Origin: Myxococcota bacterium
GTDB taxonomy: Bacteria; Myxococcota_A; Polyangia; JAAYKL01
Length of the DNA stretch: 64,000 bases
Direction of reading: 5' to 3'
Assembly: GCA_030065855.1 (NCBI GenBank)
Contig: JASJCT010000017.1
Location: forward strand, 54,470 to 118,469
Below, piece by piece: positions 19,809-41,781 of this stretch (positions are counted from its first letter, which is position 1; each line of letters begins with the position of its first letter). The notes below the pieces were generated by a model, which worked only from the letters and a program-made list of their open reading frames with translations, was not told the origin of the DNA and ran no database searches. The position numbers were made by a program, and so were the translations under genes.

Positions 19809-20008
19809 TAATAATAAAAGTTCTATTTAAAAGTTCCCTCTTGTATTTAACCCCGCTTTGCGTATAAACTCCTCCTATTGGAATTATTCCTGTCTTGCAG
19901 GAAGCATCATTATAGAAAGGTAAAATAGCAAGGGCACGACGGGGTGCATAAAGATCGGTTAGTAGCAACCAACGGTATAACGTTATTCATTTTCAGGGAG
20001 CGTTTTTG

Positions 20009-20647
20009 ATGAGACATTTTCTACTATTGAGCTGGATAGTGTTTTTTGGATATTTGGCTGGGTGTCAAGAAACAGATCCAATGCCATCTGGAAATTCCGA
20101 TTCTGACTCTGATTCTGACTCAGATTCTGACTCAGACTCTGATTCCGATTCTGACTCTGATTCTGACTCAGACTCTGATTCCGATTCCGATTCTGACTCT
20201 GATTCTGACTCAGATTCTGACTCAGATTCTGACTCAGACTCTGACTCGGATACCGACACCGATACCGACACGGATACGGATACGGACACCGATACGGACA
20301 CAGACACAGACACAGACACAGACACAGATACCGACACAGACACAGACACAGATACCGACACAGACACAGACACAGATACCGACACAGAGACAGATCCGCA
20401 TATTAACGGCGGGGATGACCCACCACAGGTAACGTCAAGTCATCAAGGATGGCGAGAGCCAAACTGTCGAGATTGCCACGACTTAAACCCCGACGTCACT
20501 GTCACAGCTGAGTGTGCAGAATGTCACGGAACCAACGGTGCACGTCCGTATTGTGGTAATGGAAGTAATTGTTCAGGGTGCCACGGCAATCGTCACGGGT
20601 CGCAAGTCTCCACGTCAAACACGCAATGCAGATTCTGCCATCTCTAG
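20009..20647 (+). CDS. SD/TD-linker lipoprotein with four CxxCH heme motifs
   Basis: The ATG at 20009 has GGGAG eight bases upstream. The 212-residue product has a lipobox ending LAGC (Cys19), then one of the longest linkers here: about 50 residues of (SD)n followed by about 50 of (TD)n. The last ~80 residues contain four c-type heme-binding motifs: CRDCH, CAECH, CSGCH and CRFCH, plus an extra Cys. The product should be a lipid-anchored tetraheme cytochrome held away from the membrane by a charged stalk. A role in extracellular or periplasmic electron transfer follows from the heme motifs but no partner is adjacent. Lipidation and heme attachment are predictions. Confidence 0.8.
20095..20394 (+). 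repeat. Long (SD)n then (TD)n simple repeat
   Basis: About 100 codons of a hexamer repeat switch from GATTCN (Asp-Ser) to GACACN (Asp-Thr) near 20250. This is the most regular linker in the window. Confidence 0.85.
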
Positions 20648-23442: not shown

Positions 23443-25479
23443 TCAGTGGGCGTCGATAAACGCGGTTGTGGATCCCTCGAACTGGGCGAGCAACCGTACG
23501 GCACCGTCGTTGACGGCAAAGAGGTTTATCACGTTGCCCGCGTCGATGCTGGGTAAACTATAACTGAGGTCTGGTGTCGCGTCATTGTCCACATCAAACC
23601 CGAGGGAGTAAGCCCCAGCTGGCAGGTCGAGGTAGTCTCCGATCCCTGCGAAGTCTACGTCCTCGTATAGAATGGCAGGATCCGAGCCCGCAGTGATGTT
23701 CCAGATGTCGACCTGGCCCACGCCGGCTGCAGCGTGGATGCCTCTCACGCGGAAATTGGCAGCGTCAAGACCATCATAGTCATCAACCAGTGCCATGGCT
23801 TGTATTGCGGCCAGTTCGTTAAACGCCACCGCAGTGTACCGCTTCCCAGGCATCAGGAAGATGTTTTCAATCGACAGTACTGCATCGCCAGCAGATTGCC
23901 CCTCTGCGCTGACAAAGAAGCTGTGACCGGCTGCAGGCAGTGCGACATAGTCGGTGGACTGGCCAAAAGCGAGGCCAGTAATGGCCGGGGTTGCGCCGCT
24001 ATCGACAAATACATCCACGGCCGGCGCATCTGGCGACAGGTGGAGTACCCGAATCTCGGCTGTGGCCGGGTCGATCTGCGCAGTTATGTTTGCTGAGAGT
24101 TGGGCGATGAGAAATACGCTGTCTCCCTGGTTCACTGCAAAGAGGGTGGCCACGGTGCCGCCTGGTACATCTGGCAAGGCAAAGGTGAGGTCAGGAATGG
24201 CGTCCTCATTCACGTCAAGGCCAAGGGTGTAGGCGCCTGCGGGTAGGTCGAGATAATCACCCACCGCGCCAAAGGGCACGTCGTTGTAGAGCTGCTGTGC
24301 ATCACCAGATGCCGGGATGTTCCAAATATCCACTGGACCCACGGCCGGGGCTGCGTGAAATGCCCGCACCCGAATGTTGCCCATGTCTAGCGCGTCGTAG
24401 TCGTCCACCAGGGCCGACCCTTGAATGGCAGCCACCTCGTTGAATGCCAGGGCTGTGTAGCTACCACCCACGCCAAGGGCGATGTCTGCTAGTGTCAATA
24501 CCACGTCAGTAGTGCCTGCAGGTGTTACCTCAAAGGTGTAGGTGCCCGCGGGGATAGTGAGGTAGTCTGAGCTGGCTTTAAACGCCAGCCCCTCGATGAC
24601 CTTGGCGCCGTTTGCCCAGATGTCTACGGCAGGGGCGTCTGACGATAAGTGTATGACCCGGATGTCAGCAGTTGCCGGGTTAATTGTGGCCGTTGTGCTC
24701 CCTCCGAGCTGAGCCACTAGAAACACATTGTCACCTTGGTTCACTGCAAAGAGGGTGGCCACGGTGCCACCTGCGAGCTCTGGAAGGGCAAATGTAAGAT
24801 CAGGCACAGCATCCTCGTTCACATCAACGCCGAGGGTGTAGGCGCCTGCTGGCAGGTCAAAGTAATCTCCCACAGCGCCAAAAGGCACGTCGTTGTAGAG
24901 CTGCTGCGGATCCCCGGTCTCTGGCAAATTCCAGATATCAACTGAACCCACGCCCGGCGCTGCATGAAATGCGCGCACCCGAATGTTGGCCATGTCTAGA
25001 GCATCATAGTCATCTACTATTGCGCTGCCCTGAATGGCAGCGACTTCGTTAAACGCTAGGGCTGTGTAGCTTTCACCAGCGCTGAGCGCAACGTCAGCAA
25101 GGGTCAGCACCACGTCAGTAGTGCCCGCAGGTGTTACCTCAAAGGTGTAGGTGCCCGCAGGTACGGCGAGGTAGTCTGAGCTCGCGGCAAAAGCCAGGTT
25201 CTCGATAACCTTGGTACCTCCTGCCCAGATGTCCACGGCCGGGGCATCTGCGGACAAGTGGATGACCCTTATCATTGCGTCGTCCCCATCTGTGGCCGTG
25301 TCGGTTTCGGTGTCGGTGTCCGTGTCAGTGTCGGTGTCCGTGTCCGTGTCCATGCTCGAGTCTGTGTCAAGGGTTTCGTTGTCGTCGTCATCGTCGTCGC
25401 AAGCGACAATGCCAATGGTCAGAGCCGGCACAATGACCGTCCAGTACTGAATGTGTTTTCCAAGTTTCTTAACAAACAT
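23443..25479 (-). CDS. SD/TD-linker lipoprotein with three DUF4397 repeats
   Basis: The 678-residue product has a lipobox ending IVAC (Cys27), six Asp, a short TD linker, then three tandem units of about 200 residues starting near residues 70, 276 and 482. Each contains two DUF4397-type halves (IRVIHLSxDAPAVDIW and RVRAFHAAPxVGxVDIW). Units 1 and 2 are nearly identical at the DNA level, with a period of about 609 bases; unit 3 is diverged. The fold is probably a beta-sandwich; function is unknown. A good ribosome site (AAAGGAGG) precedes the ATG. A sigma-54-like promoter at 25595-25610 points at this gene. Confidence 0.82.
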   Translation of the reverse strand: MFVKKLGKHIQYWTVIVPALTIGIVACDDDDDDNETLDTDSSMDTDTDTDTDTDTDTETDTATDGDDAMIRVIHLSADAPAVDIWAGGTKVIENLAFAASSDYLAVPAGTYTFEVTPAGTTDVVLTLADVALSAGESYTALAFNEVAAIQGSAIVDDYDALDMANIRVRAFHAAPGVGSVDIWNLPETGDPQQLYNDVPFGAVGDYFDLPAGAYTLGVDVNEDAVPDLTFALPELAGGTVATLFAVNQGDNVFLVAQLGGSTTATINPATADIRVIHLSSDAPAVDIWANGAKVIEGLAFKASSDYLTIPAGTYTFEVTPAGTTDVVLTLADIALGVGGSYTALAFNEVAAIQGSALVDDYDALDMGNIRVRAFHAAPAVGPVDIWNIPASGDAQQLYNDVPFGAVGDYLDLPAGAYTLGLDVNEDAIPDLTFALPDVPGGTVATLFAVNQGDSVFLIAQLSANITAQIDPATAEIRVLHLSPDAPAVDVFVDSGATPAITGLAFGQSTDYVALPAAGHSFFVSAEGQSAGDAVLSIENIFLMPGKRYTAVAFNELAAIQAMALVDDYDGLDAANFRVRGIHAAAGVGQVDIWNITAGSDPAILYEDVDFAGIGDYLDLPAGAYSLGFDVDNDATPDLSYSLPSIDAGNVINLFAVNDGAVRLLAQFEGSTTAFIDAH
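25297..25369 (-). repeat. Short (TD)n simple repeat linker
   Basis: About 24 codons of the GAYACN hexamer encode the linker of the DUF4397 lipoprotein, the shortest linker of this kind here. Confidence 0.75.
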
Positions 25480-25594
25480 CTTTAGCCTCCTTTGGGCTGG
25501 GCTTTGGTGCCCGTTGTTGATTGTCCAACCAAGGACAACAGTTCATCATCAACCACTGTTCTCGCTATTTGCGTTCATCTCAATGGGCTGCATT

Positions 25595-25610
25595 TGCTAG
25601 AACTGTGCCA
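25595..25610 (-). promoter_or_regulatory. Candidate sigma-54 promoter
   Basis: The minus strand reads TGGCACAGTTCTAGCA. It has GG and GC separated by ten bases and matches the TGGCAC-N5-TTGCA consensus except for TA in place of TT. Transcription would start near 25584, about 105 bases before the DUF4397 lipoprotein ATG. The divergent gene encodes a sigma-54 activator. Confidence 0.55.
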
Positions 25611-25652
25611 GAGAGCGTTGCTTTCTTTTTGATTGTCATTAAAATCCACCCC

Positions 25653-27086
25653 ATGGTCGACGCACCGCCCAGCTATCGTTCTGAGCTGATACCGCCAATG
25701 CGACCGCGGTCTGAAACAAGGCTGCTGCTAGTGGATGACGACCCGGACTTGGTGGCCCTGACCAAGAAGCGGCTGGAGAAATACGGTTTTGTTGTTGCTT
25801 GCGCTGACAATGCTGAAGCCGCCCTTTTGGCGAGTGAAACCGACAACTTCGATGCGGTGGTCACCGATTTGAGCATGCCCGGCATGACCGGTATCGAGCT
25901 TACGGAGCGGCTCTCACAAAACCGCCCGAGCATGCCAGTCATCGTCATGACCTCTTTTGGAGATTTGGATACGGCCATTGCCGCGATTCGCGCTGGCGCC
26001 TATGACTTCATCACCAAGCCCATTGAGCTCAAGGCACTGCTCCTCGCCTTGGAACGCGCTGTTCAGTTCGGATACCTTCGGGAAGAAGTTCGGGTACTTC
26101 GGCACGCGGCTCGCAATGTAGATCGCTTTGAATCGCTCAAGGGCGAGAGCCAGGCAATGCGCGGAATGTACGAAATTATCGCCAAGGCGGCTGAGACAGA
26201 TGTTACCGTATTAATCACCGGCGAAAGTGGCACGGGAAAGGAGCTGATTGCCCGCGCCCTGCACGATCGCAGCTCCCGCCGCAGCGGTCCGTTTGTCGCG
26301 GTGAACTGCTCTGCCCTGCCAGAGAACCTCCTCGAAAGCGAGCTGTTTGGCCATGTTAAGGGCGCCTTTACCGACGCCAAAACCGCGCGCACAGGCCTCT
26401 TTGCCCAGGCCCGTGAGGGCACGATTTTTTTAGACGAGATCGGCGATATGCCGCTTGGCCTACAGGCAAAAATCCTTCGCGCCCTGGAGGCGCGGAAAAT
26501 TCGACCGATCGGCGGCAGTGCAGAAGTTGCCTATAACGCGCGCATCGTGGCCGCGACCAATCGAAATCTCGCAACTGCGGTCAAGGAAAAGCTCTTTCGC
26601 GAGGACCTGTTCTACCGCCTCAACGTGGTGCAGATCGCGGTCCCCCCCTTGAGCGAACGCGGGCGGGATATCTTGCTCTTGGCACAGCATTTTATCGAGC
26701 AATTCTCGACCGATATGAAACGGGATGTCGCAGGCCTGACAACAGCGGCTGCGGCCCGCCTGCTCGCCTACCACTGGCCCGGCAATGTTCGAGAGCTGCG
26801 CAACTGCGTCGAGCAGTCCGTGGCACTGTCTAGTACGAACCAGATAACGGTCGATGATTTACCCGAGCATATCCGTGGCTACAAAGCCAATCATGTGCTG
26901 GTTTCAAGCGCTGATCCATCAGACCTCGTACCCCTGGAGGTCATGGAGCAGAGGTACATCAAGCGCGTGCTCGACGCAGTACACGGCAACAAGGCTATGG
27001 CAGCCCGGATTCTGGGCTTGCACCGCAAAACCCTGTACCGCAAGCTGGAACACCATGGCCTGATCGGGACTGACAAATCCGAGTAA
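25653..27086 (+). CDS. NtrC-family sigma-54 response regulator
   Basis: The product (about 477 residues from ATG 25653) has a receiver domain with VVTDLSMPGMTG (phospho-Asp) and the conserved Thr/Lys downstream, then a sigma-54 AAA+ domain with GESGTGKE, GAFTDA, FLDEIGDMP and the RVRR-type region, then a Fis-type helix-turn-helix (AARILGLHRKTLYRKL). It should activate RpoN promoters on phosphorylation. A TTG at 25521 extends the frame but would overlap the sigma-54-like promoter; neither start has a clear ribosome site. No kinase gene is adjacent; the histidine kinase at 28.4 kb is a possible partner. Confidence 0.88.
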   Translation: MVDAPPSYRSELIPPMRPRSETRLLLVDDDPDLVALTKKRLEKYGFVVACADNAEAALLASETDNFDAVVTDLSMPGMTGIELTERLSQNRPSMPVIVMTSFGDLDTAIAAIRAGAYDFITKPIELKALLLALERAVQFGYLREEVRVLRHAARNVDRFESLKGESQAMRGMYEIIAKAAETDVTVLITGESGTGKELIARALHDRSSRRSGPFVAVNCSALPENLLESELFGHVKGAFTDAKTARTGLFAQAREGTIFLDEIGDMPLGLQAKILRALEARKIRPIGGSAEVAYNARIVAATNRNLATAVKEKLFREDLFYRLNVVQIAVPPLSERGRDILLLAQHFIEQFSTDMKRDVAGLTTAAAARLLAYHWPGNVRELRNCVEQSVALSSTNQITVDDLPEHIRGYKANHVLVSSADPSDLVPLEVMEQRYIKRVLDAVHGNKAMAARILGLHRKTLYRKLEHHGLIGTDKSE

Positions 27087-27408: not shown

Positions 27409-28315
27409 ATGGGAGGTTCCGCGTTAGCTCGACAGAGAATAATCGTTGGTTTGCTCCATATCGCGCTTATTTGTACAGGAACATTTTGCGCATGCACTGA
27501 AAACAATGATAGCGATGGTTCAAGCGAAGACGATGACAACGAAAATAGCAGCGATGTAGATTCGGACGCTGATTCAGATTCGGACGCTGATTCAGACACT
27601 GACGCTGATTCAGACACTGACACCGATTCAGATACTGAATCCGACACAGGCATAGACACCGATCCTGATAAACGGCGATTACGCCTTTGTTCAAAACCCA
27701 AAGATAACGCGCATCACACCGAGCGGGTCAATCTCGACATTGAACCCCAACATACCAAGTGCCAACGGCATTACGTTGGATCGTGAAGGATTTCTCTATT
27801 TGTCAGATGATGAAATCATCAGAAAGTTAGATCCAGATTCTGGACAGAGTACGGATTTTGCCAGAGTGCCTGCCGATGATTCCAACGGCATTACGTTCAG
27901 CCAAGATTATAAAATATTATATGTGAGCACTTGTGGCGGCCATAGCCCTCCGCATGACGGCAAGGTCTATAAAATACCCATTAAAGAGGACGGAACCGCA
28001 GGCGAAACAGAACTATTTGCTGAACTTCCAGTGGATTCCCATATGAACGGAATAACAATGGATGAGTGTGGAAATCTGTATGTCGTTGCGTCGATCGGTC
28101 TTATCTATCGGCTCTCGCCAGATGCAGAGTGGGAAATGGTGATTGATCTAAACACGAGGGGCGCAGGGAAAAATATGGATATTTCGTCTATTAATTTTGG
28201 AAGCGGCATTGGGGGTTGGAAGAATGATTCAATATACATCGCCCCATATAAAAACGATGGCTTTTATGAAGTTGATATGGGGGTGCGCGGCAAATGGGAA
28301 CCGCATCTCTATTGA
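27409..28315 (+). pseudogene. SD/TD-linker propeller lipoprotein split by a frameshift
   Basis: Two overlapping frames make one recognisable protein. The first (27409-27786) has a signal with a lipobox-like FCAC, then an Asp-Ser/Thr linker, and runs out in an unrelated tail. The second frame, open from about 27654, continues with GDYAFVQNPKITRITPSGS and an SMP-30/NHL-like propeller with repeated NGITLD-type strands to 28315. The switch must fall between the TAG in the second frame at ~27651 and about 27675, near GATAAACGG, and needs a +1 shift. It is either a real inactivating indel, a sequencing error, or less likely programmed frameshifting. The intact protein would be about 300 residues. 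Confidence 0.65.
27553..27665 (+). repeat. SD/TD linker simple repeat
   Basis: Degenerate Asp-Ser/Thr-Ala hexamers form the linker of the frameshifted lipoprotein. The frameshift lies just after its end. Confidence 0.7.
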
Positions 28316-28336: not shown

Positions 28337-28356
28337 TGTGTGTCATAAGGCGTCAT
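28337..28356 (+). repeat. 20-base direct repeat, right copy
   Basis: TGTGTGTCATAAGGCGTCAT is the second copy of the repeat at 27235. It overlaps the stop codon of the convergent histidine kinase gene. Confidence 0.5.
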
Positions 28357-29468
28357 ATCGGCAGATAGAGGCTAAACCGAGCCCCGCCCTCGGGTCGATT
28401 CTCTGCCCAAATTCTTCCATTGTGGGCTGCTGCGATCTTTTGGGCGATGGCAAGCCCAAGTCCCTGCCCCTCTCCATTGCCCTGGCGCGGGGCTGATCCC
28501 CGCCAGAACGGTTTGAAGATGCTCTCAAGCTCGGCAGTCGGTATGCCAAGCCCCTCATCTTCGACCGTTATGGTGAGTCCAGATGGTCCCCGCTGGCACG
28601 TCAGATAAACAGTTCCGCCAGCAGGGGAATGGGCAACTGCATTTCCCAAAAGGTTGATGATTACCTGCTCGATCTTGCCTTCATCCAACTGCTGGGATGG
28701 CATGGCATCGCACTGACCGAATTCGAATCGAACATTTTTATTTTTGACATCGATACGCGCCAATTCAATGCAGTGGGTTAAAATATCGTCGAGTCGGGTT
28801 GCTGTAGGGTGAATCTCAAACCTGCCAGCCTCGATGGCCGAGTAATCCAAGAAATCGTTGACGATTTTCGTCATTGCCTGACTGCGCCGCGCTATCATGC
28901 CCAAATATTGGCTGTGCTCCTCGCCGATCTCTTCCCCGATCTCTTCGATGAGCAGCTCAGCAGATGATTGAATAACGCTGATGGGCCGCTTTAAATCGTG
29001 CGCAGCCATGGCCAAAAAACGGTTCTTGAGCGTATTTTGCCGGTCGAGTTCTGCCCGGTTGCGCTCAAGCTCCCGGTTGAGATTTAGCAGTTCGTTGTTG
29101 AGGCTGAGGAACTCCTTGCGCAGCTTCTCCTGTTCTGCAAAATCCACCGCGCCGAGCGCTGCTATCTGATCGCCTAGGTCGAAAAACCGAAAATACAAGG
29201 TCTCTGGGAAGTCGATGAATGTATTCAGCGTGAGCAAATGGGTGCGCTCGTGATCCTGCAAAAGTGTTGTGAAGTCGAAGTCGTTGCGAGCTGTAAAGAA
29301 CAAATCCGAAAGCGTCTCACCGGTCACATCTCGACCCAACATCCGGGTTGTCTGGGGGCTGCTGTTGAGGATTTTGCCACTGCGATCGAGCAAAAGGAAG
29401 ACAACAGGCGCATGGTGTTGCACGTAGCGCCTAAACACAGCGTCGAGGTCAGACCCTTCCAAGCTCAC
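28353..29468 (-). CDS. PAS-domain sensor histidine kinase
   Basis: The product (about 371 residues from GTG 29468, or 369 from TTG 29462) starts inside the 3-prime end of the B12-domain gene, so translation is coupled. An N-terminal PAS-like domain (VVFLLLDRSGKILNSS) is followed by a coiled linker. Then come a HisKA motif with the phosphorylated His in AAHDLKRP and an ATPase domain with NLLGNAVAHS, DEGLGIP and GQGLGLAIA. There is no transmembrane helix, so it is cytosolic. A longer frame from 29546 is possible. Its partner regulator is not adjacent; the preceding cobalamin domain is the likely sensor input. Confidence 0.88.
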   Translation of the reverse strand: MSLEGSDLDAVFRRYVQHHAPVVFLLLDRSGKILNSSPQTTRMLGRDVTGETLSDLFFTARNDFDFTTLLQDHERTHLLTLNTFIDFPETLYFRFFDLGDQIAALGAVDFAEQEKLRKEFLSLNNELLNLNRELERNRAELDRQNTLKNRFLAMAAHDLKRPISVIQSSAELLIEEIGEEIGEEHSQYLGMIARRSQAMTKIVNDFLDYSAIEAGRFEIHPTATRLDDILTHCIELARIDVKNKNVRFEFGQCDAMPSQQLDEGKIEQVIINLLGNAVAHSPAGGTVYLTCQRGPSGLTITVEDEGLGIPTAELESIFKPFWRGSAPRQGNGEGQGLGLAIAQKIAAAHNGRIWAENRPEGGARFSLYLPI

Positions 29469-30108
29469 CCACCTTAAGTACAAAGTTCTCCACCTCGTGG
29501 AGGGAAGATAGATATCGCACGGCTTTGAAGCGGTTGAAAAAATCACCCACGTCCTGCATAAACGCCTGCCCCCCCACCAGTACAGGCAGGTGGGGCATTG
29601 CGTCCTGAATCCGCTTGATGGCCTCGGCGAGTTGATCGAGGTTGAAGATCATGCTGAGGGACAGGCCCAGCACATCGGTCGGGGTTTGGATGAGGAATTT
29701 AATCAGGTCGTCGACCGGGGTATTGGCCCCAAAGAAAAACCCGTTCCAGCCGTGCAGCTCGAACAGATCACAAACCATCTTAGCGCCGACTTGATGGTAT
29801 TCATTGGCTACGCAGGCCACGGCAATGGATTTGTTGACGTGATCGCGCTGAAACAGCATTGGATATGTCATCGCCATCAGCCGTTCGGTAATGGCGGTGG
29901 AGAGGTGCTCCGTGGCAACCGAAAGCGCGTTGCGCTCCCATAGATGACCGATGTCGTATAGGGACCGCTGGAACAGCTCGGTATATAACGGCTTGAGGCC
30001 AATGCCCGCTTCGATGAACCCGGCCACTATCGCCTCGCACGCATGCCTATCCCCACGTCTCAGTGCTGAAAAATATGTCTTGTATTGCTTTTCAGGGATT
30101 GTTTCCAT
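29449..30108 (-). CDS. Free-standing cobalamin-binding sensor domain (CarH C-terminal type)
   Basis: The 219-residue protein has a helical N-terminal subdomain with W57, then E67-H68: the Wx9EH signature of CarH/LitR-type adenosylcobalamin photoreceptors. A Rossmann B12 domain follows with YHQVG (His105, expected lower Co ligand), GANTPVDDLI, and PVLVGGQAF. CarH normally also has a MerR DNA-binding domain; here none is present. It sits between a radical SAM gene (16 bases upstream) and an overlapping histidine kinase, so it may pass a light or B12 signal to that kinase. B12 binding is strongly supported by motifs; light sensing is inference. Confidence 0.82.
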   Translation of the reverse strand: METIPEKQYKTYFSALRRGDRHACEAIVAGFIEAGIGLKPLYTELFQRSLYDIGHLWERNALSVATEHLSTAITERLMAMTYPMLFQRDHVNKSIAVACVANEYHQVGAKMVCDLFELHGWNGFFFGANTPVDDLIKFLIQTPTDVLGLSLSMIFNLDQLAEAIKRIQDAMPHLPVLVGGQAFMQDVGDFFNRFKAVRYLSSLHEVENFVLKVGELGRV

Positions 30109-30124
30109 AACGAGTTATTTTGGG

Positions 30125-31864
30125 CTATGTCGACCGGTCCGTACCAACCATGGCTGCCACCGCCTTTGAGGGGGCGATATCTTCGATAATCGACGCCCCT
30201 GTCCCTAATATGGGAGCGCTCAGCTCGCTTCTCATGCGTTCTTCCGGACTGAATTTTGTAACAATCGTAGCAGGTTGTATCATATCGCCAAACAGACGAA
30301 CCCTTTGTTTCCAGAGCCCTGCTAGAAGAGATAACGCCACTCTTGAAGCCCTTTCCTTAACAGTTGGCGGTCCAAGGTGAGCAGCGATTTCCTCATCCAA
30401 CGCACGCGCCCGATGTCGCTCTTTGTCATTTACTGCATATTTCGCGATGACGGGCAATACCATTCCGTATTCTTTTGTCCTTTGGGCCAGTTCCGCCTTG
30501 CGTGTCTCAAGGCATGTATCGAGCTCAGGTGCTGCACACAATGCTTTGTACCCCCTAAAGCACGTCTCAACGATGCGATACAGGGAGCTCGAGTTGACCT
30601 CGAAATCCTGGCGAAACGCTGCATTTAGCCATTTTTCCGGCTCGCCGTCAGCAAATGCTGGATGTGTGTAGTTGAGGCACTTCTGCCCGTGGGTATCTTC
30701 CCACGCCACGTCTTCTCTGAATGTTTTTCTCGCCTTATGTTCCTCGTAAAGTGCTGTCACCGGCATGGGCGTGAGCAGCATGAACTGAACCATGTCTGCA
30801 TTGAGATCGACCAGAAAGTCAATGTCCTCCTGCATATTGTCCGGCGTGTGGTGCTCCATGCACAGAATGCCAGATGCCAAAACACTGATACCCCGGTCGC
30901 GCAGGTCCTTCACCAGTTGCTTCGCGTCAATGCCTTTGTTTTTGACAAACCGCTCTTGATGACTCCTCGATTCGAATCCAATCCACACAAACTGGGCCCC
31001 AAGGCGCACGAGGTTATCAATACCAAACGCCGTGAGCGCTTCAGCAGAAGAAAAGATATGAAAACCAAAAAAGCGCTTTTCTCGCTCCATCTCTGCAATG
31101 AGGTCAAGGGCCCGCTGTTTGTCCTTTAAAAAATTTTCGTCCATAACAAAGAAGTTGTCGGTGCCGCGGGCATCTGCGATGCGCTGAGCAGTCTCGAACA
31201 GTTCCCTGCCAGACGATATAAACGACGTGTATTTTCGGCCGAAAAAATGGGATGTACAGCAAAAACTGCAGGCGTTGACACAGCCCACACCGGTTACGAG
31301 CATGCTCGCGCAGGTGCCCGGAACCGGCGCTCCAAAAATAGATTGCCGCTCCGTAGACGGGAGCACAGGGTGGACAATCGGCGCGTTGGGATCCTGGCCC
31401 AGATAGGTCCTAAGCCATCGAATGCCCTCCCCTTGCACCACGTGGTCGCAATCTATCAGATCTTTGACCCCTTCAATCGCAGCGCCGTGCCCACCCAGCA
31501 AAATCGTTGAACCAGCCGCGTGAACTCGGGTCAAGCGGGCCATTTCTTTGGCCTTTAAAAAATTTGGAACGATAAACGAAACACCCACGATGTCGTATTG
31601 CTTCTTTATCTCCCGGACGAACCTGGCCTTTGAGGGAAAGTCGAGGACAGTGACGTCTGCGTCCACATTTGAGGCGATGAAATACAGGCCAAAGGAGCGA
31701 TGATGAAAGCGTAAAGACGCTATCCCCTGAGCCTTGGTGACCTGGTTGTGGTACAGCTCCATGATGTTTTCTTTACGCCCGTAAGCGTCATCCACCCCGT
31801 AGGGGCCGAACACACTGGTGAGCAAGATGCGTTTGCGCGACCCTTTTTCTCTTTTATTTTTCAT
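30125..31864 (-). CDS. B12-binding radical SAM protein
   Basis: The 579-residue protein has an N-terminal Rossmann cobalamin-type domain with ILLGGHGA, then a radical SAM core with the [4Fe-4S] motif C195-x3-C199-x2-C202 (GCVNACSFC), and a helical C-terminal third. Class B radical SAM enzymes of this layout methylate unactivated carbons or rearrange lipids and cofactors. The substrate is not evident; a lipid or tetrapyrrole is plausible. It is the first gene of a three-gene minus-strand operon with the cobalamin sensor and histidine kinase. No strong ribosome site precedes its ATG. Confidence 0.85.
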   Translation of the reverse strand: MKNKREKGSRKRILLTSVFGPYGVDDAYGRKENIMELYHNQVTKAQGIASLRFHHRSFGLYFIASNVDADVTVLDFPSKARFVREIKKQYDIVGVSFIVPNFLKAKEMARLTRVHAAGSTILLGGHGAAIEGVKDLIDCDHVVQGEGIRWLRTYLGQDPNAPIVHPVLPSTERQSIFGAPVPGTCASMLVTGVGCVNACSFCCTSHFFGRKYTSFISSGRELFETAQRIADARGTDNFFVMDENFLKDKQRALDLIAEMEREKRFFGFHIFSSAEALTAFGIDNLVRLGAQFVWIGFESRSHQERFVKNKGIDAKQLVKDLRDRGISVLASGILCMEHHTPDNMQEDIDFLVDLNADMVQFMLLTPMPVTALYEEHKARKTFREDVAWEDTHGQKCLNYTHPAFADGEPEKWLNAAFRQDFEVNSSSLYRIVETCFRGYKALCAAPELDTCLETRKAELAQRTKEYGMVLPVIAKYAVNDKERHRARALDEEIAAHLGPPTVKERASRVALSLLAGLWKQRVRLFGDMIQPATIVTKFSPEERMRSELSAPILGTGASIIEDIAPSKAVAAMVGTDRST

Positions 31865-39253: not shown

Positions 39254-39342
39254 CCGAGCCGCACGCACACATCGTTCGGCACGTGACTTGTTCGCCCAAC
39301 AATCCTTGTTATAAGCAGCTAACAACAAGAAGAAGAAAAAAA

Positions 39343-41781
39343 ATGACGAGACCCAGTGTAATTGTAATCGGAAGTGGTTTTGGCGGATTGGCAGCTGCGG
39401 TGCGCCAACTCGCCAAGGGATATCAGGTCACTGTCCTCGAAAAGTTGGCCAGTCCCGGGGGTCGTGCGCGCTCGTTTCAGCAAGACGGCTTTGTCTTTGA
39501 TGCCGGCCCTACAGTGGTCACCGCACCTCAACTATTTGAGGAATTGTGGGCATTGGCCGGTGCTTCGCTTGGCGATTCAGTTCAGTTGAAAGCTGTCGAA
39601 CCCCTGTATGCGGTGCGATTCCACGACGGCGACACCTTTCATTTTTGCAGCGATGAGGATCAAATGGAGGACCAGATCCGCAGACTGGCTCCTGAGGATC
39701 TGGAGGGGTATCGGGATTACATCAACCTCAGCCGCGATATCTTTGACGTGGGGTTTAAGCGCCTCTCAGACGTGCCCTTTGATTCGTTTGGTTCGATGGC
39801 CAAAATCGCGCCGAAGATGATTCGTCTTAAAAGCTACCACACGGTGTATGGTCTGATAAAAAAATACATCAAGAACGAAAAACTACGGCAGGTCTTGAGC
39901 TTTCATACCCTACTGGTGGGAGGTAATCCGTTTACTACGACATCGATCTACTGCCTTATCAGCTACCTGGAACAAAAATGGGGGGTCAAGTTTCCCATGG
40001 GCGGCGTGGGTGCGTTGGTCAATGGACTGGTCGAACTGATCAAACAGCAAGGGGGGGAGGTGCGCTTCAACGCCGAGGTCAGTGAGATAGTGGTTCAAGA
40101 TGGCCGGGCCACAGGCGTACGACTCAAAAGCGGTGAGACCCTTTCCGCAGACGTTGTCATCGCCAATGCAGATCCTGCTTGGACTTACCGCCACCTCATT
40201 CCAGAGGCAGCGCGCCAGCACTGGACCAACCGCCGCATCGAAAAGGCGAACTATTCCATGAGCTGTGTGGTGTGGTACTTCGGTACCAAGCGGCAATACC
40301 CGGACGTGCATCAGCACACAATCTTGCTCGGCCCTCGATATCGGGAGCTGCTCGACGATATTTTTCACCGCAAGGTGCTGGCTGAGGATTTTAGTCTCTA
40401 CCTGCACCGCTCCACAGCTGGGGATCCATCCCTGGCGCCCAAAGGGTGCGATACGTTTTACGTACTGGCACCAGTGCCCAATTTGGCCGCCGATGTGGAC
40501 TGGACCCGGCAGGCAGAGCCGTATCGAGATGCGATTGAGCAATATCTCGGCCAGACCGTGCTGCCTGACTTGAGCACTGAGATCTGTACCTCACACGTGA
40601 TAACGCCCCTTGACTTTAGAGATAATCTGCTCTCTTTTCAGGGAGCTGCCTTTGGCATGACCCCGCTGTTTCGTCAAAGCGCCTACTTTCGTCCGCATAA
40701 CAAAAGTGAGGACGTCGAAAACTTGTTCTTTGTCGGTGCTGGCACCCATCCTGGCGCGGGCATCCCTGGGGTGTTGTCTTCAGCCAAGGTGGTCGATCGC
40801 CAGCTGCCGATTGCGCCCTATTTTGTTCAGCGCAACGGCAATGCTGCACTGCCAACAGACGATTCACACTTATCCCTTGAGGCAGATCTCCAGCGCTGCA
40901 AGGCAATCCTGAAAAAAGGCTCCAAGAGTTTTGCAGCTGCTGCCTTGCTCATGCCGCGTCGACTGAGATCTCCAGCGGCAGCGGTGTACGCGTTTTGTCG
41001 CGTCGCAGACGACGCGGTCGATTTGGCTGAAGTGCCAGGTGACGCCGTAGCTGCCCTTACCGATAAGCTCGATCGCATCTATCGGGGCTGTCCAGACGAC
41101 CATCCAGCCGAACGCGCATTTTGTGATGTGGTCCACAGGTTCGGCATACCCCGGCCTGTGCCGCAAGCGCTGATCGACGGCTTCCATTGGGACGCCACCA
41201 ATCGGCAATACCAAACATTGGCCGATCTGGAAGCCTATTGCGTACGGGTCGCGTCCACGGTCGGCGTGATGATCACACTGCTGATGGGCCGTAAGGAGCC
41301 AGAGGTCCTTGCCCGGGCCTGCGATCTGGGCTTGGCCATGCAGCTGACCAACATCTGTCGCGATGTGGGCGAAGATGCAGCCATGGGACGCCTCTACTTG
41401 CCCCGATCCTGGTTGACCGAGGCCGGGATCGATGCGGAGCAATTCCTGCGCGCGCCCCGATTCGACGACACCCTCGCCGGAGTGGTGCAGCGACTGTTAG
41501 AGACAGCAGACGACTACTACCAAAGAGCTGACGTGGGCATCAGCCATCTACCAAGGGATTGCCGCCTCGGCATCTACTCGGCTCGTTTGATTTACGCGGC
41601 CATTGGCAGCCAAATAAAACAAAATAAATATGACTCGGTCTCAAAGCGCGCCTACACCTCAAAGGGGCAAAAGGCCGGCTTGATCCTACGCGCACAAAAC
41701 GCCCGCTTCTGGCGACCGAGGCCCAACGATGCTCCCCCAGCGCCGGCCGCCCGATTCCTGGTCGATGCGGCAGCGGATTAA
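39343..41781 (+). CDS. Phytoene desaturase-phytoene synthase fusion (CrtI-CrtB)
   Basis: The start was placed at ATG 39343 (812 residues). Residues 1-~490 are a CrtI-type FAD-dependent desaturase: GSGFGGLAAAV dinucleotide fold, FDAGPTVVTAP, and the FVGAGTHPGAGIPGVLSSAK ending. After a 20-residue linker, ~512-812 is a phytoene synthase with both Asp-rich motifs (DDAVD and NICRDVGED). One polypeptide thus joins two geranylgeranyl-PP molecules to phytoene and desaturates it toward coloured carotenes. Both halves look intact. The fusion order CrtI-CrtB is unusual. The gene stops at TTAA shared with the convergent regulator. Confidence 0.9.
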   Translation: MTRPSVIVIGSGFGGLAAAVRQLAKGYQVTVLEKLASPGGRARSFQQDGFVFDAGPTVVTAPQLFEELWALAGASLGDSVQLKAVEPLYAVRFHDGDTFHFCSDEDQMEDQIRRLAPEDLEGYRDYINLSRDIFDVGFKRLSDVPFDSFGSMAKIAPKMIRLKSYHTVYGLIKKYIKNEKLRQVLSFHTLLVGGNPFTTTSIYCLISYLEQKWGVKFPMGGVGALVNGLVELIKQQGGEVRFNAEVSEIVVQDGRATGVRLKSGETLSADVVIANADPAWTYRHLIPEAARQHWTNRRIEKANYSMSCVVWYFGTKRQYPDVHQHTILLGPRYRELLDDIFHRKVLAEDFSLYLHRSTAGDPSLAPKGCDTFYVLAPVPNLAADVDWTRQAEPYRDAIEQYLGQTVLPDLSTEICTSHVITPLDFRDNLLSFQGAAFGMTPLFRQSAYFRPHNKSEDVENLFFVGAGTHPGAGIPGVLSSAKVVDRQLPIAPYFVQRNGNAALPTDDSHLSLEADLQRCKAILKKGSKSFAAAALLMPRRLRSPAAAVYAFCRVADDAVDLAEVPGDAVAALTDKLDRIYRGCPDDHPAERAFCDVVHRFGIPRPVPQALIDGFHWDATNRQYQTLADLEAYCVRVASTVGVMITLLMGRKEPEVLARACDLGLAMQLTNICRDVGEDAAMGRLYLPRSWLTEAGIDAEQFLRAPRFDDTLAGVVQRLLETADDYYQRADVGISHLPRDCRLGIYSARLIYAAIGSQIKQNKYDSVSKRAYTSKGQKAGLILRAQNARFWRPRPNDAPPAPAARFLVDAAAD

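What the first reader, a model, noticed from the sequence alone, without database searches (positions are those of the whole stretch)
28353..31864. Free-standing CarH-type B12 sensor translationally coupled to a histidine kinase and a B12 radical SAM enzyme
Seen: the 219-residue protein has W57 and E67-H68 with the exact Wx9EH spacing of CarH-class adenosylcobalamin photoreceptors and a lower-ligand His (YHQVG), but no MerR DNA-binding head. It overlaps a soluble PAS histidine kinase by about 20 bases, and a B12-binding radical SAM gene lies 16 bases upstream. Known: CarH senses light through coenzyme B12 and represses carotenoid genes. Inference: here the same sensor may control a phosphorelay instead of DNA directly, giving a cobalamin (light or B12 level) two-component system. 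A CrtI-CrtB carotenoid gene sits 8-10 kb away.
Basis: partly seen in the sequence, partly recalled or inferred. Interest (0 to 1): 0.78.

Follow-up and report, generated by a model that had tools for sequence, protein, structure and literature searches.

The report
B12 sensor paired with kinase
The gene of a free-standing protein predicted to bind vitamin B12 overlaps the gene of a histidine kinase, a pairing that recurs in genomes labelled as many different phyla, so the first protein likely tells the kinase about light or B12 supply instead of binding DNA itself.

Summary
Window 29449-30108(-) encodes a 219-aa free-standing B12-domain protein with GxxW-x9-EH and the lower-ligand His but no MerR head; it overlaps by 14-20 nt a soluble PAS histidine kinase (28353-29468). 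Its best solved relatives are photocobilins, ahead of CarH. The pairing is not local: among 80 named loci found with a family alignment, the next gene begins with the same PAS-coil module in 72 of 77 assessable loci, and carries a kinase in at least 54. Other ORFs of these loci gave 1 and 22 of 421. The PAS-coil is the constant part; outputs differ (kinase, hybrid kinase, GGDEF, CxxC tail). A globin-fold gene (42 of 80) or a heme-oxygenase-domain protein (10) often lies near, never both; the window has neither. The upstream B12 radical SAM gene is not part of the conserved unit, and no carotenoid link was found. Likely mechanism: an adenosylcobalamin sensor docks on the PAS-coil and switches the kinase; green light is the likelier signal, B12 supply the main rival. 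Most relatives have NxxH where the published light signature has GxxH. A new variant of a kind already foreseen (photoglobin/B12 signalling; B12-globin-HO clusters).

The parts
29449..30108 (-). free-standing B12-domain sensor, 219 aa (cap domain 11-80, Rossmann B12 domain 94-184)
   Evidence: Pfam PF02607 and PF02310; best PDB match photocobilin 8j2w/8j2x
29938..29940 (-). codon of W57, cap of the adenosyl face in CarH
   Evidence: 81 of 81 genome proteins, independent of the search patterns
29905..29910 (-). codons of E67-H68 (EH of Wx9EH)
   Evidence: 120 of 120 listed homologues
29794..29796 (-). codon of H105, predicted lower cobalt ligand, in N102-E-Y-H-Q-V-G
   Evidence: 81 of 81 (partly by construction); 112 of 120 fit [ND]E.H..G
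28353..29468 (-). soluble PAS histidine kinase (start GTG 29468, or TTG 29462); overlaps the sensor gene
   Evidence: HisKA and HATPase_c above cut-off; model pLDDT 88.7
29148..29456 (-). PAS domain of the kinase (residues 5-107), followed by the coil to residue 177
   Evidence: predicted secondary structure; module found next to the B12 gene in 72 of 77 loci
28998..29000 (-). codon of phospho-acceptor His157 (HDLKRP)
   Evidence: invariant in 42 rows of A3
30125..31864 (-). B12-binding radical SAM gene, 16 nt upstream; probably co-transcribed here but not part of the conserved unit
   Evidence: Radical_SAM above and B12-binding just below cut-off; 0 relatives in 80 loci

Best explanation
The window encodes a two-gene signalling unit, repeated in genomes labelled as many phyla, in which a free-standing protein predicted to bind adenosylcobalamin likely docks on the PAS-coil of the overlapping kinase and would change its activity when green light breaks the cobalt-carbon bond. 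Shown: the gene pair, its recurrence, the kept B12 residues, the kept kinase motifs, and different outputs behind one PAS-coil. Inferred: B12 binding, docking, light as the signal. The version here lacks the globin or heme-oxygenase gene that many relatives carry, so it would be a one-chromophore form. The target response regulator is unknown.
For: The next gene carries the PAS module in 72 of 77 assessable loci, with a kinase match in the same ORF in 54; of the other 18, Pfam shows kinases in two more (L088, L137) and GGDEF in three (L104, L116, L136). The profiles were built from the window kinase, L046 and 40 of the 80 partners; with the window kinase alone as query 70 of 80 loci match at 1e-7 or better and 55 at 1e-30 or better. 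Background: 1 PAS and 22 kinase matches in 421 other ORFs. Gaps in 69 measured pairs: median 1 nt, range -26 to 30, 30 overlapping (the start nearest the stop was chosen, which favours short gaps). Own genome: a globin-B12 fusion overlaps a GGDEF gene with a weak PAS-module match (4e-9). G083 has B12 protein, PAS kinase, globin and a receiver-ATPase gene in a row. GxxW, EH and GxxxP of the published light signature are present. Two corrinoid adenosyltransferase families occur in the genome. No His or Cys is 90% conserved in the PAS part of A3, so no sign of a PAS cofactor. In print, standalone photocobilin acted on a separate enzyme by protein contact (PMC10979010, passages).
Against: No biochemistry. 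GxxH of the light signature is NxxH here and in 106 of 120 homologues; 61 of 81 loci have N and 6 have G. Many carriers are labelled as sulfate reducers, Bacteroidales or Candidatus Methanofastidiosum, for which light use is not obvious. The three same-family genomes with the free-standing form (G004, G011, G013) have a CxxC-tail partner and a globin, not a kinase. The window sensor is a lone long branch without supported kin. No response regulator directly adjoins the pair.
Confidence: 0.5

Rival explanations
1. The pair is a B12-supply sensor: bound versus unbound adenosylcobalamin, not light, sets the kinase.
For: NxxH in place of the light signature's GxxH; carriers labelled as anaerobic lineages such as Desulfobacteraceae, Bacteroidales and Candidatus Methanofastidiosum; a B12 radical SAM gene just upstream.
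Against: W57 and EH, whose counterparts contact the adenosyl group in CarH and are called crucial for its photoreceptor activity (PMC9304148 passages), are kept in 81 of 81. No cobalamin riboswitch reached Rfam's threshold in the window or in 11 of the 80 loci.
Confidence: 0.28
2. The window sensor works as a photocobilin assembled in trans, with the globin domain of the fusion protein encoded on contig C98.
For: B12 domain closest to photocobilins; globin-fold genes near 42 of 80 relatives; one globin match in the genome, fused to another B12 domain.
Against: That globin already has its own B12 domain and a GGDEF partner; no PF01126 heme oxygenase in the genome.
Confidence: 0.08
3. The kinase senses its own ligand through PAS and the B12 protein only tunes its amount or place.
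For: PAS domains often bind ligands (general knowledge); no sensor-kinase complex was modelled here.
Against: The PAS-coil is kept next to the B12 gene across different outputs; no His or Cys is 90% conserved in the PAS part.
Confidence: 0.08
4. The 219-aa protein is a corrinoid carrier serving the upstream radical SAM enzyme, and the kinase is an unrelated neighbour.
For: 16 nt spacing to the radical SAM gene; weak, below-cut-off matches to corrinoid proteins MtgC, MtbC and MtaC.
Against: Radical SAM linkage in 0 of 80 loci, PAS linkage in 72 of 77; Wx9EH cap motif in 120 of 120.
Confidence: 0.04

Closest known systems
Photocobilins (SasPcob 8j2w/8j2x, AbDPcob 8j2y; PMC10979010)
   Same: B12 module is the best solved relative (4e-30 by profile); standalone forms act on a separate enzyme by protein contact (passages)
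   Different: no globin domain fused here; partner is a PAS histidine kinase; NxxH, not GxxH
CarH/LitR (5c8d, 3whp)
   Same: Wx9EH cap and E-x-H-x-x-G lower-ligand motif
   Different: no MerR DNA-binding head; NCBIfam CarH 46.2 bits against a cut-off of 400; weaker PDB match
BBAG-2 globin / B12 protein / heme oxygenase clusters, largely of Myxococcales (PMC10151467, passages)
   Same: separate genes for a B12 protein and a globin, as in many relatives found here
   Different: no kinase named in the passages seen; the small globins here have invariant HGF, and no RGMC was seen in them; the window has no globin or HO gene
Photoglobin-B12 signalling prediction (Schneider et al. 2022; paper not held, content recalled)
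   Same: predicted photoglobin and B12 domains linked with signalling domains
   Different: not readable here, so whether this very gene pair is in it is unknown
AerR/PpaA of purple bacteria (recalled, no call)
   Same: free-standing B12-binding protein acting through a protein partner
   Different: partner is a transcription factor, not a kinase

Membership tests
CarH photoreceptor-repressor | Wx9EH cap motif | tested here: met
   W57, E67-H68
CarH photoreceptor-repressor | lower-ligand His in the E-x-H-x-x-G motif | tested here: met
   E103-Y-H105-Q-V-G108
CarH photoreceptor-repressor | N-terminal MerR DNA-binding domain | tested here: not met
   no MerR match in Pfam; the cap domain starts at residue 11
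CarH photoreceptor-repressor | NCBIfam CarH equivalog cut-off | tested here: not met
   46.2 bits against 400
CarH photoreceptor-repressor | AdoCbl-bound oligomer changed by light | not testable with these tools
   needs purified protein
Photocobilin | B12 domain homologous to SasPcob | tested here: met
   best PDB matches 8j2w/8j2x, 4e-20, 4e-30 by profile
Photocobilin | bilin-binding globin domain in the same chain | tested here: not met
   219 aa hold the B12 domains only; the genome's one globin match is on another contig
Light-responsive B12 signature GxxW, EH, GxxH, GxxxP (PMC11796333 section 8) | all four elements | tested here: not met
   GxxW, EH and GxxxP present; GxxH is NxxH (N102)
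Histidine kinase of a two-component system | HisKA with phospho-acceptor His, and HATPase_c | tested here: met
   59.3 and 97 bits, above cut-offs; H157, N272, N276, D304, G308 invariant in 42 rows
Histidine kinase of a two-component system | cognate response regulator | tested here: inconclusive
   none adjoins; an NtrC-type regulator lies at 25521-27086(+); receiver-like genes follow the kinase in several relatives (Pfam-checked in G083 only)
Photoglobin/phycobiliprotein-type globin (third gene of relatives) | globin fold | tested here: met
Photoglobin/phycobiliprotein-type globin (third gene of relatives) | binds bilin, not heme | tested here: inconclusive
   heme globins and bilin proteins score alike; a His (H94) is invariant in 20 of 20, and 5 of 20 rows hold any Cys

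The most novel reading that the evidence does not exclude
A widespread class of B12-gated two-component systems: a free-standing adenosylcobalamin photosensor plugs into a conserved PAS-coil socket whose output can be swapped (kinase, hybrid kinase with receiver and Hpt, diguanylate cyclase, CxxC tail), with a globin or a heme-oxygenase protein as an optional second module; the window holds the minimal one-chromophore kinase form, and its NxxH would hide it from the published light signature.
Probability: 0.45. Interest if true: 0.72.

Novelty: new variant of a known kind. Interest (0 to 1): 0.56.

Why it matters
It would extend green-light or B12 sensing from repressors and photocobilins to ordinary phosphorelay signalling in many lineages, including sulfate reducers and one archaeal genus (by MAG labels). 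The separable sensor and PAS-coil socket can be tested with two purified proteins and would suit optogenetic kinases. It also poses a concrete question: what a photolabile cofactor senses in organisms that may seldom see light.

Tried and rejected

Limits of the counts. The 80 loci are the best 80 of 197 and were found through two peptide patterns, so E67, H68 and H105 counts there are partly by construction. The PAS and kinase profiles were trained on the window, L046 and 40 of the 80 partners, the globin profile on L041 and 19 genes of the 80 loci. Left out of the 77: L112, L119, L127 (under 400 nt left on the contig). Without the PAS module next door: L086 (heme-oxygenase protein next), L125 (heme-oxygenase protein, then a PAS kinase), L139 (globin, then a weak PAS-kinase match), L098 (a kinase fragment), L115 (broken B12 gene). 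Of the 18 PAS partners below the kinase threshold: 9 CxxC tails, 3 GGDEF (L104, L116, L136), 2 kinases by Pfam (L088, L137), 3 cut by the contig end (L089, L111, L122), 1 broken (L102). Taxon names are record labels, mostly of MAG contigs. For globin versus heme oxygenase, short contigs may hide genes; on the 49 loci of 9 kb or more it is 24 globin, 8 HO, 0 both, 17 neither (hypergeometric 0.0024, and 0.00029 for all 80); relatedness is not corrected for.
Full report
What is there. On the minus strand 28353-31864 lie three ORFs read in the order radical SAM (30125-31864), B12 protein (29449-30108), kinase (28353-29468). The B12 protein has the two Pfam domains of CarH-like sensors, the helical cap and the Rossmann B12 domain, and no other Pfam match. 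G54xxW57, E67-H68, H105 and G127xxxP131 are in place; three residues before the ligand His is Asn, not Gly. The kinase has HisKA and HATPase_c above cut-off. Its AlphaFold model (pLDDT 88.7) shows by its secondary structure a PAS-like N-terminus, one long helix (110-177) and a kinase core; the fold search lists a WalK model and chimeric LOV-histidine kinases at the top. The start is GTG 29468 or TTG 29462, so the two genes overlap by 20 or 14 nt.

What it is related to. By sequence the B12 protein is nearest to photocobilins 8j2w/8j2x, then 8j2y and CtMerR 8jbs, with CarH weaker. A protein search found 435 relatives and listed the best 120; apart from the window's own copy they are 44-52% identical, and 119 of 120 carry the two B12 domains alone, one (P0089) an HTH domain as well. 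All 120 keep Wx9EH; 106 have N and 6 have D before E-x-H, and 8 did not fit that pattern and were not read further. The published mining of light-responsive B12 domains used GxxW, EH, GxxH, GxxxP (PMC11796333, sections 8, 11 and 12 read); a strict use of GxxH would pass over most of this family. In CtMerR that Gly acts through its main-chain carbonyl (section 11), so Asn need not abolish function; this is inference.

The conserved unit. A profile scan of species genomes gave 197 relatives; the best 80 became loci, labelled as Spirochaetota, Thermodesulfobacteriota, Bacteroidota, SAR324, Planctomycetota, Verrucomicrobiota, Myxococcota, Acidobacteriota, Pseudomonadota, Nitrospirota, Omnitrophota, Fibrobacterota and others, and two as the archaeal Candidatus Methanofastidiosum. 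In 72 of 77 assessable loci the next gene on the same strand begins with the kinase's PAS-coil module; in 54 the same ORF passes the kinase threshold and in two more (L088, L137) Pfam finds a kinase ATPase. Background in the same loci is 1 PAS and 22 kinase matches in 421 ORFs. With the window's kinase alone as query, 70 of 80 loci match at 1e-7 or better and 55 at 1e-30 or better, so the result does not hang on the trained profiles. Outputs behind the PAS-coil differ: plain kinase; kinase with receiver and Hpt (L064, L083; L087 with Hpt just below cut-off), kinase with Hpt (L094), a second PAS with ATPase and receiver (L088), GGDEF (L104, L116, L136), and a CxxC tail in nine of the 80. The helix after PAS (LNxELxNLxRELxKKNAEL) is shared across outputs. 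This is why I take the PAS-coil as the socket and the B12 protein as its plug: inference, not shown.

Nearest genomes. Of 13 same-family genomes three (G004, G011, G013) have the free-standing form at E below 1e-50, each with a globin upstream and a PAS-CxxC protein downstream. In a draw of 377 genomes of the phylum 15, the window's own included, match at 1e-25 or better; G083 shows B12 protein, PAS kinase, globin and a receiver-ATPase gene in a row. So among those close relatives the window's kinase version was not met, and its closest genome records by identity are a Spirochaetaceae MAG (L060, 51%) and a PVC-group MAG (L078, 50%).

What is not part of it. The radical SAM protein has relatives in 11 of 13 same-family genomes, but in G004, G011 and G013 on other contigs than the B12 gene, and 0 of 9 non-own loci have the B12 or PAS module close by. 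Carotenoid genes are not near the relatives, and the genome has its own MerR-B12 protein (Pfam) with no crtI or crtB match in the 17 kb read around it.

How it may work. AdoCbl can probably be made: two corrinoid adenosyltransferase families are present. In CarH, CtMerR and photocobilin light removes the adenosyl group, and in CtMerR the EH residues move (PMC11796333 section 11). The same cap residues here would relay this to the PAS-coil and the kinase. The rival is B12 supply as the signal; NxxH, carriers of anaerobic lineages and the missing globin keep it alive.

Print. PMC10979010 (passages and section 9) describes standalone photocobilins acting through protein contact. PMC10151467 (passages) describes clusters of B12 protein, globin and heme oxygenase; its single hit for 'kinase' is in the reference list. 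PMC9304148 (passages) covers Wx9EH in myxobacteria. Searches for photocobilin, photoglobin, Wx9EH and for B12-binding with histidine kinase listed no paper that, from title and start of abstract, reports the B12-PAS-kinase gene pair; full texts were searched only as terms. Schneider et al. 2022, which predicted photoglobin-B12 signalling links (recalled), is not held, so priority cannot be settled.

Noticed in passing
L041:10192-12253 (own genome, contig C98): A globin-B12 fusion (374 aa, GTLW-x9-EH kept) overlaps a GGDEF gene with a weak match to the PAS module: a cyclase version of the same plan in the same genome.
   Followed up: partly
L073, L081, L084, L086, L088, L097, L099, L124, L125, L134: Two-domain proteins of about 430 aa with a heme-oxygenase domain and an unknown C-terminal half (motif RGMP) lie near the B12 gene, never together with the globin gene (0 of 80).
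   Followed up: partly
L036, L062, L117, L118, L121, L126, L129, L130, L133, L135: PAS-coil proteins ending in a CxxC...CxxC tail of unknown function take the kinase's place next to the B12 gene.
   Followed up: partly
alignment A2, residue 94 of its first row: The small globins have an invariant His in an HGF motif (20 of 20), which would fit a heme ligand as well as a bilin site.
   Followed up: no
window 30125-31864: The B12 radical SAM protein has relatives in 11 of 13 same-family genomes (32-70% identity), three copies in G004; function unknown.
   Followed up: partly
window 39283-41781: Phytoene desaturase and phytoene synthase are fused in one 832-aa ORF.
   Followed up: no
window 20006-20647, 23443-25479, 27409-27786: Lipoprotein-like ORFs with long SD/TD repeats after the N-terminus; similar ones in family relatives (L034, L036) and elsewhere in the genome (L041).
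   Followed up: no
L082, L093: Two Candidatus Methanofastidiosum MAG contigs carry B12 protein, PAS kinase and globin in a row; contamination of the bins was not checked.
   Followed up: no
L098, L102, L115: Copies whose B12 or kinase frame is broken, by mutation or assembly error; left as found.
   Followed up: no
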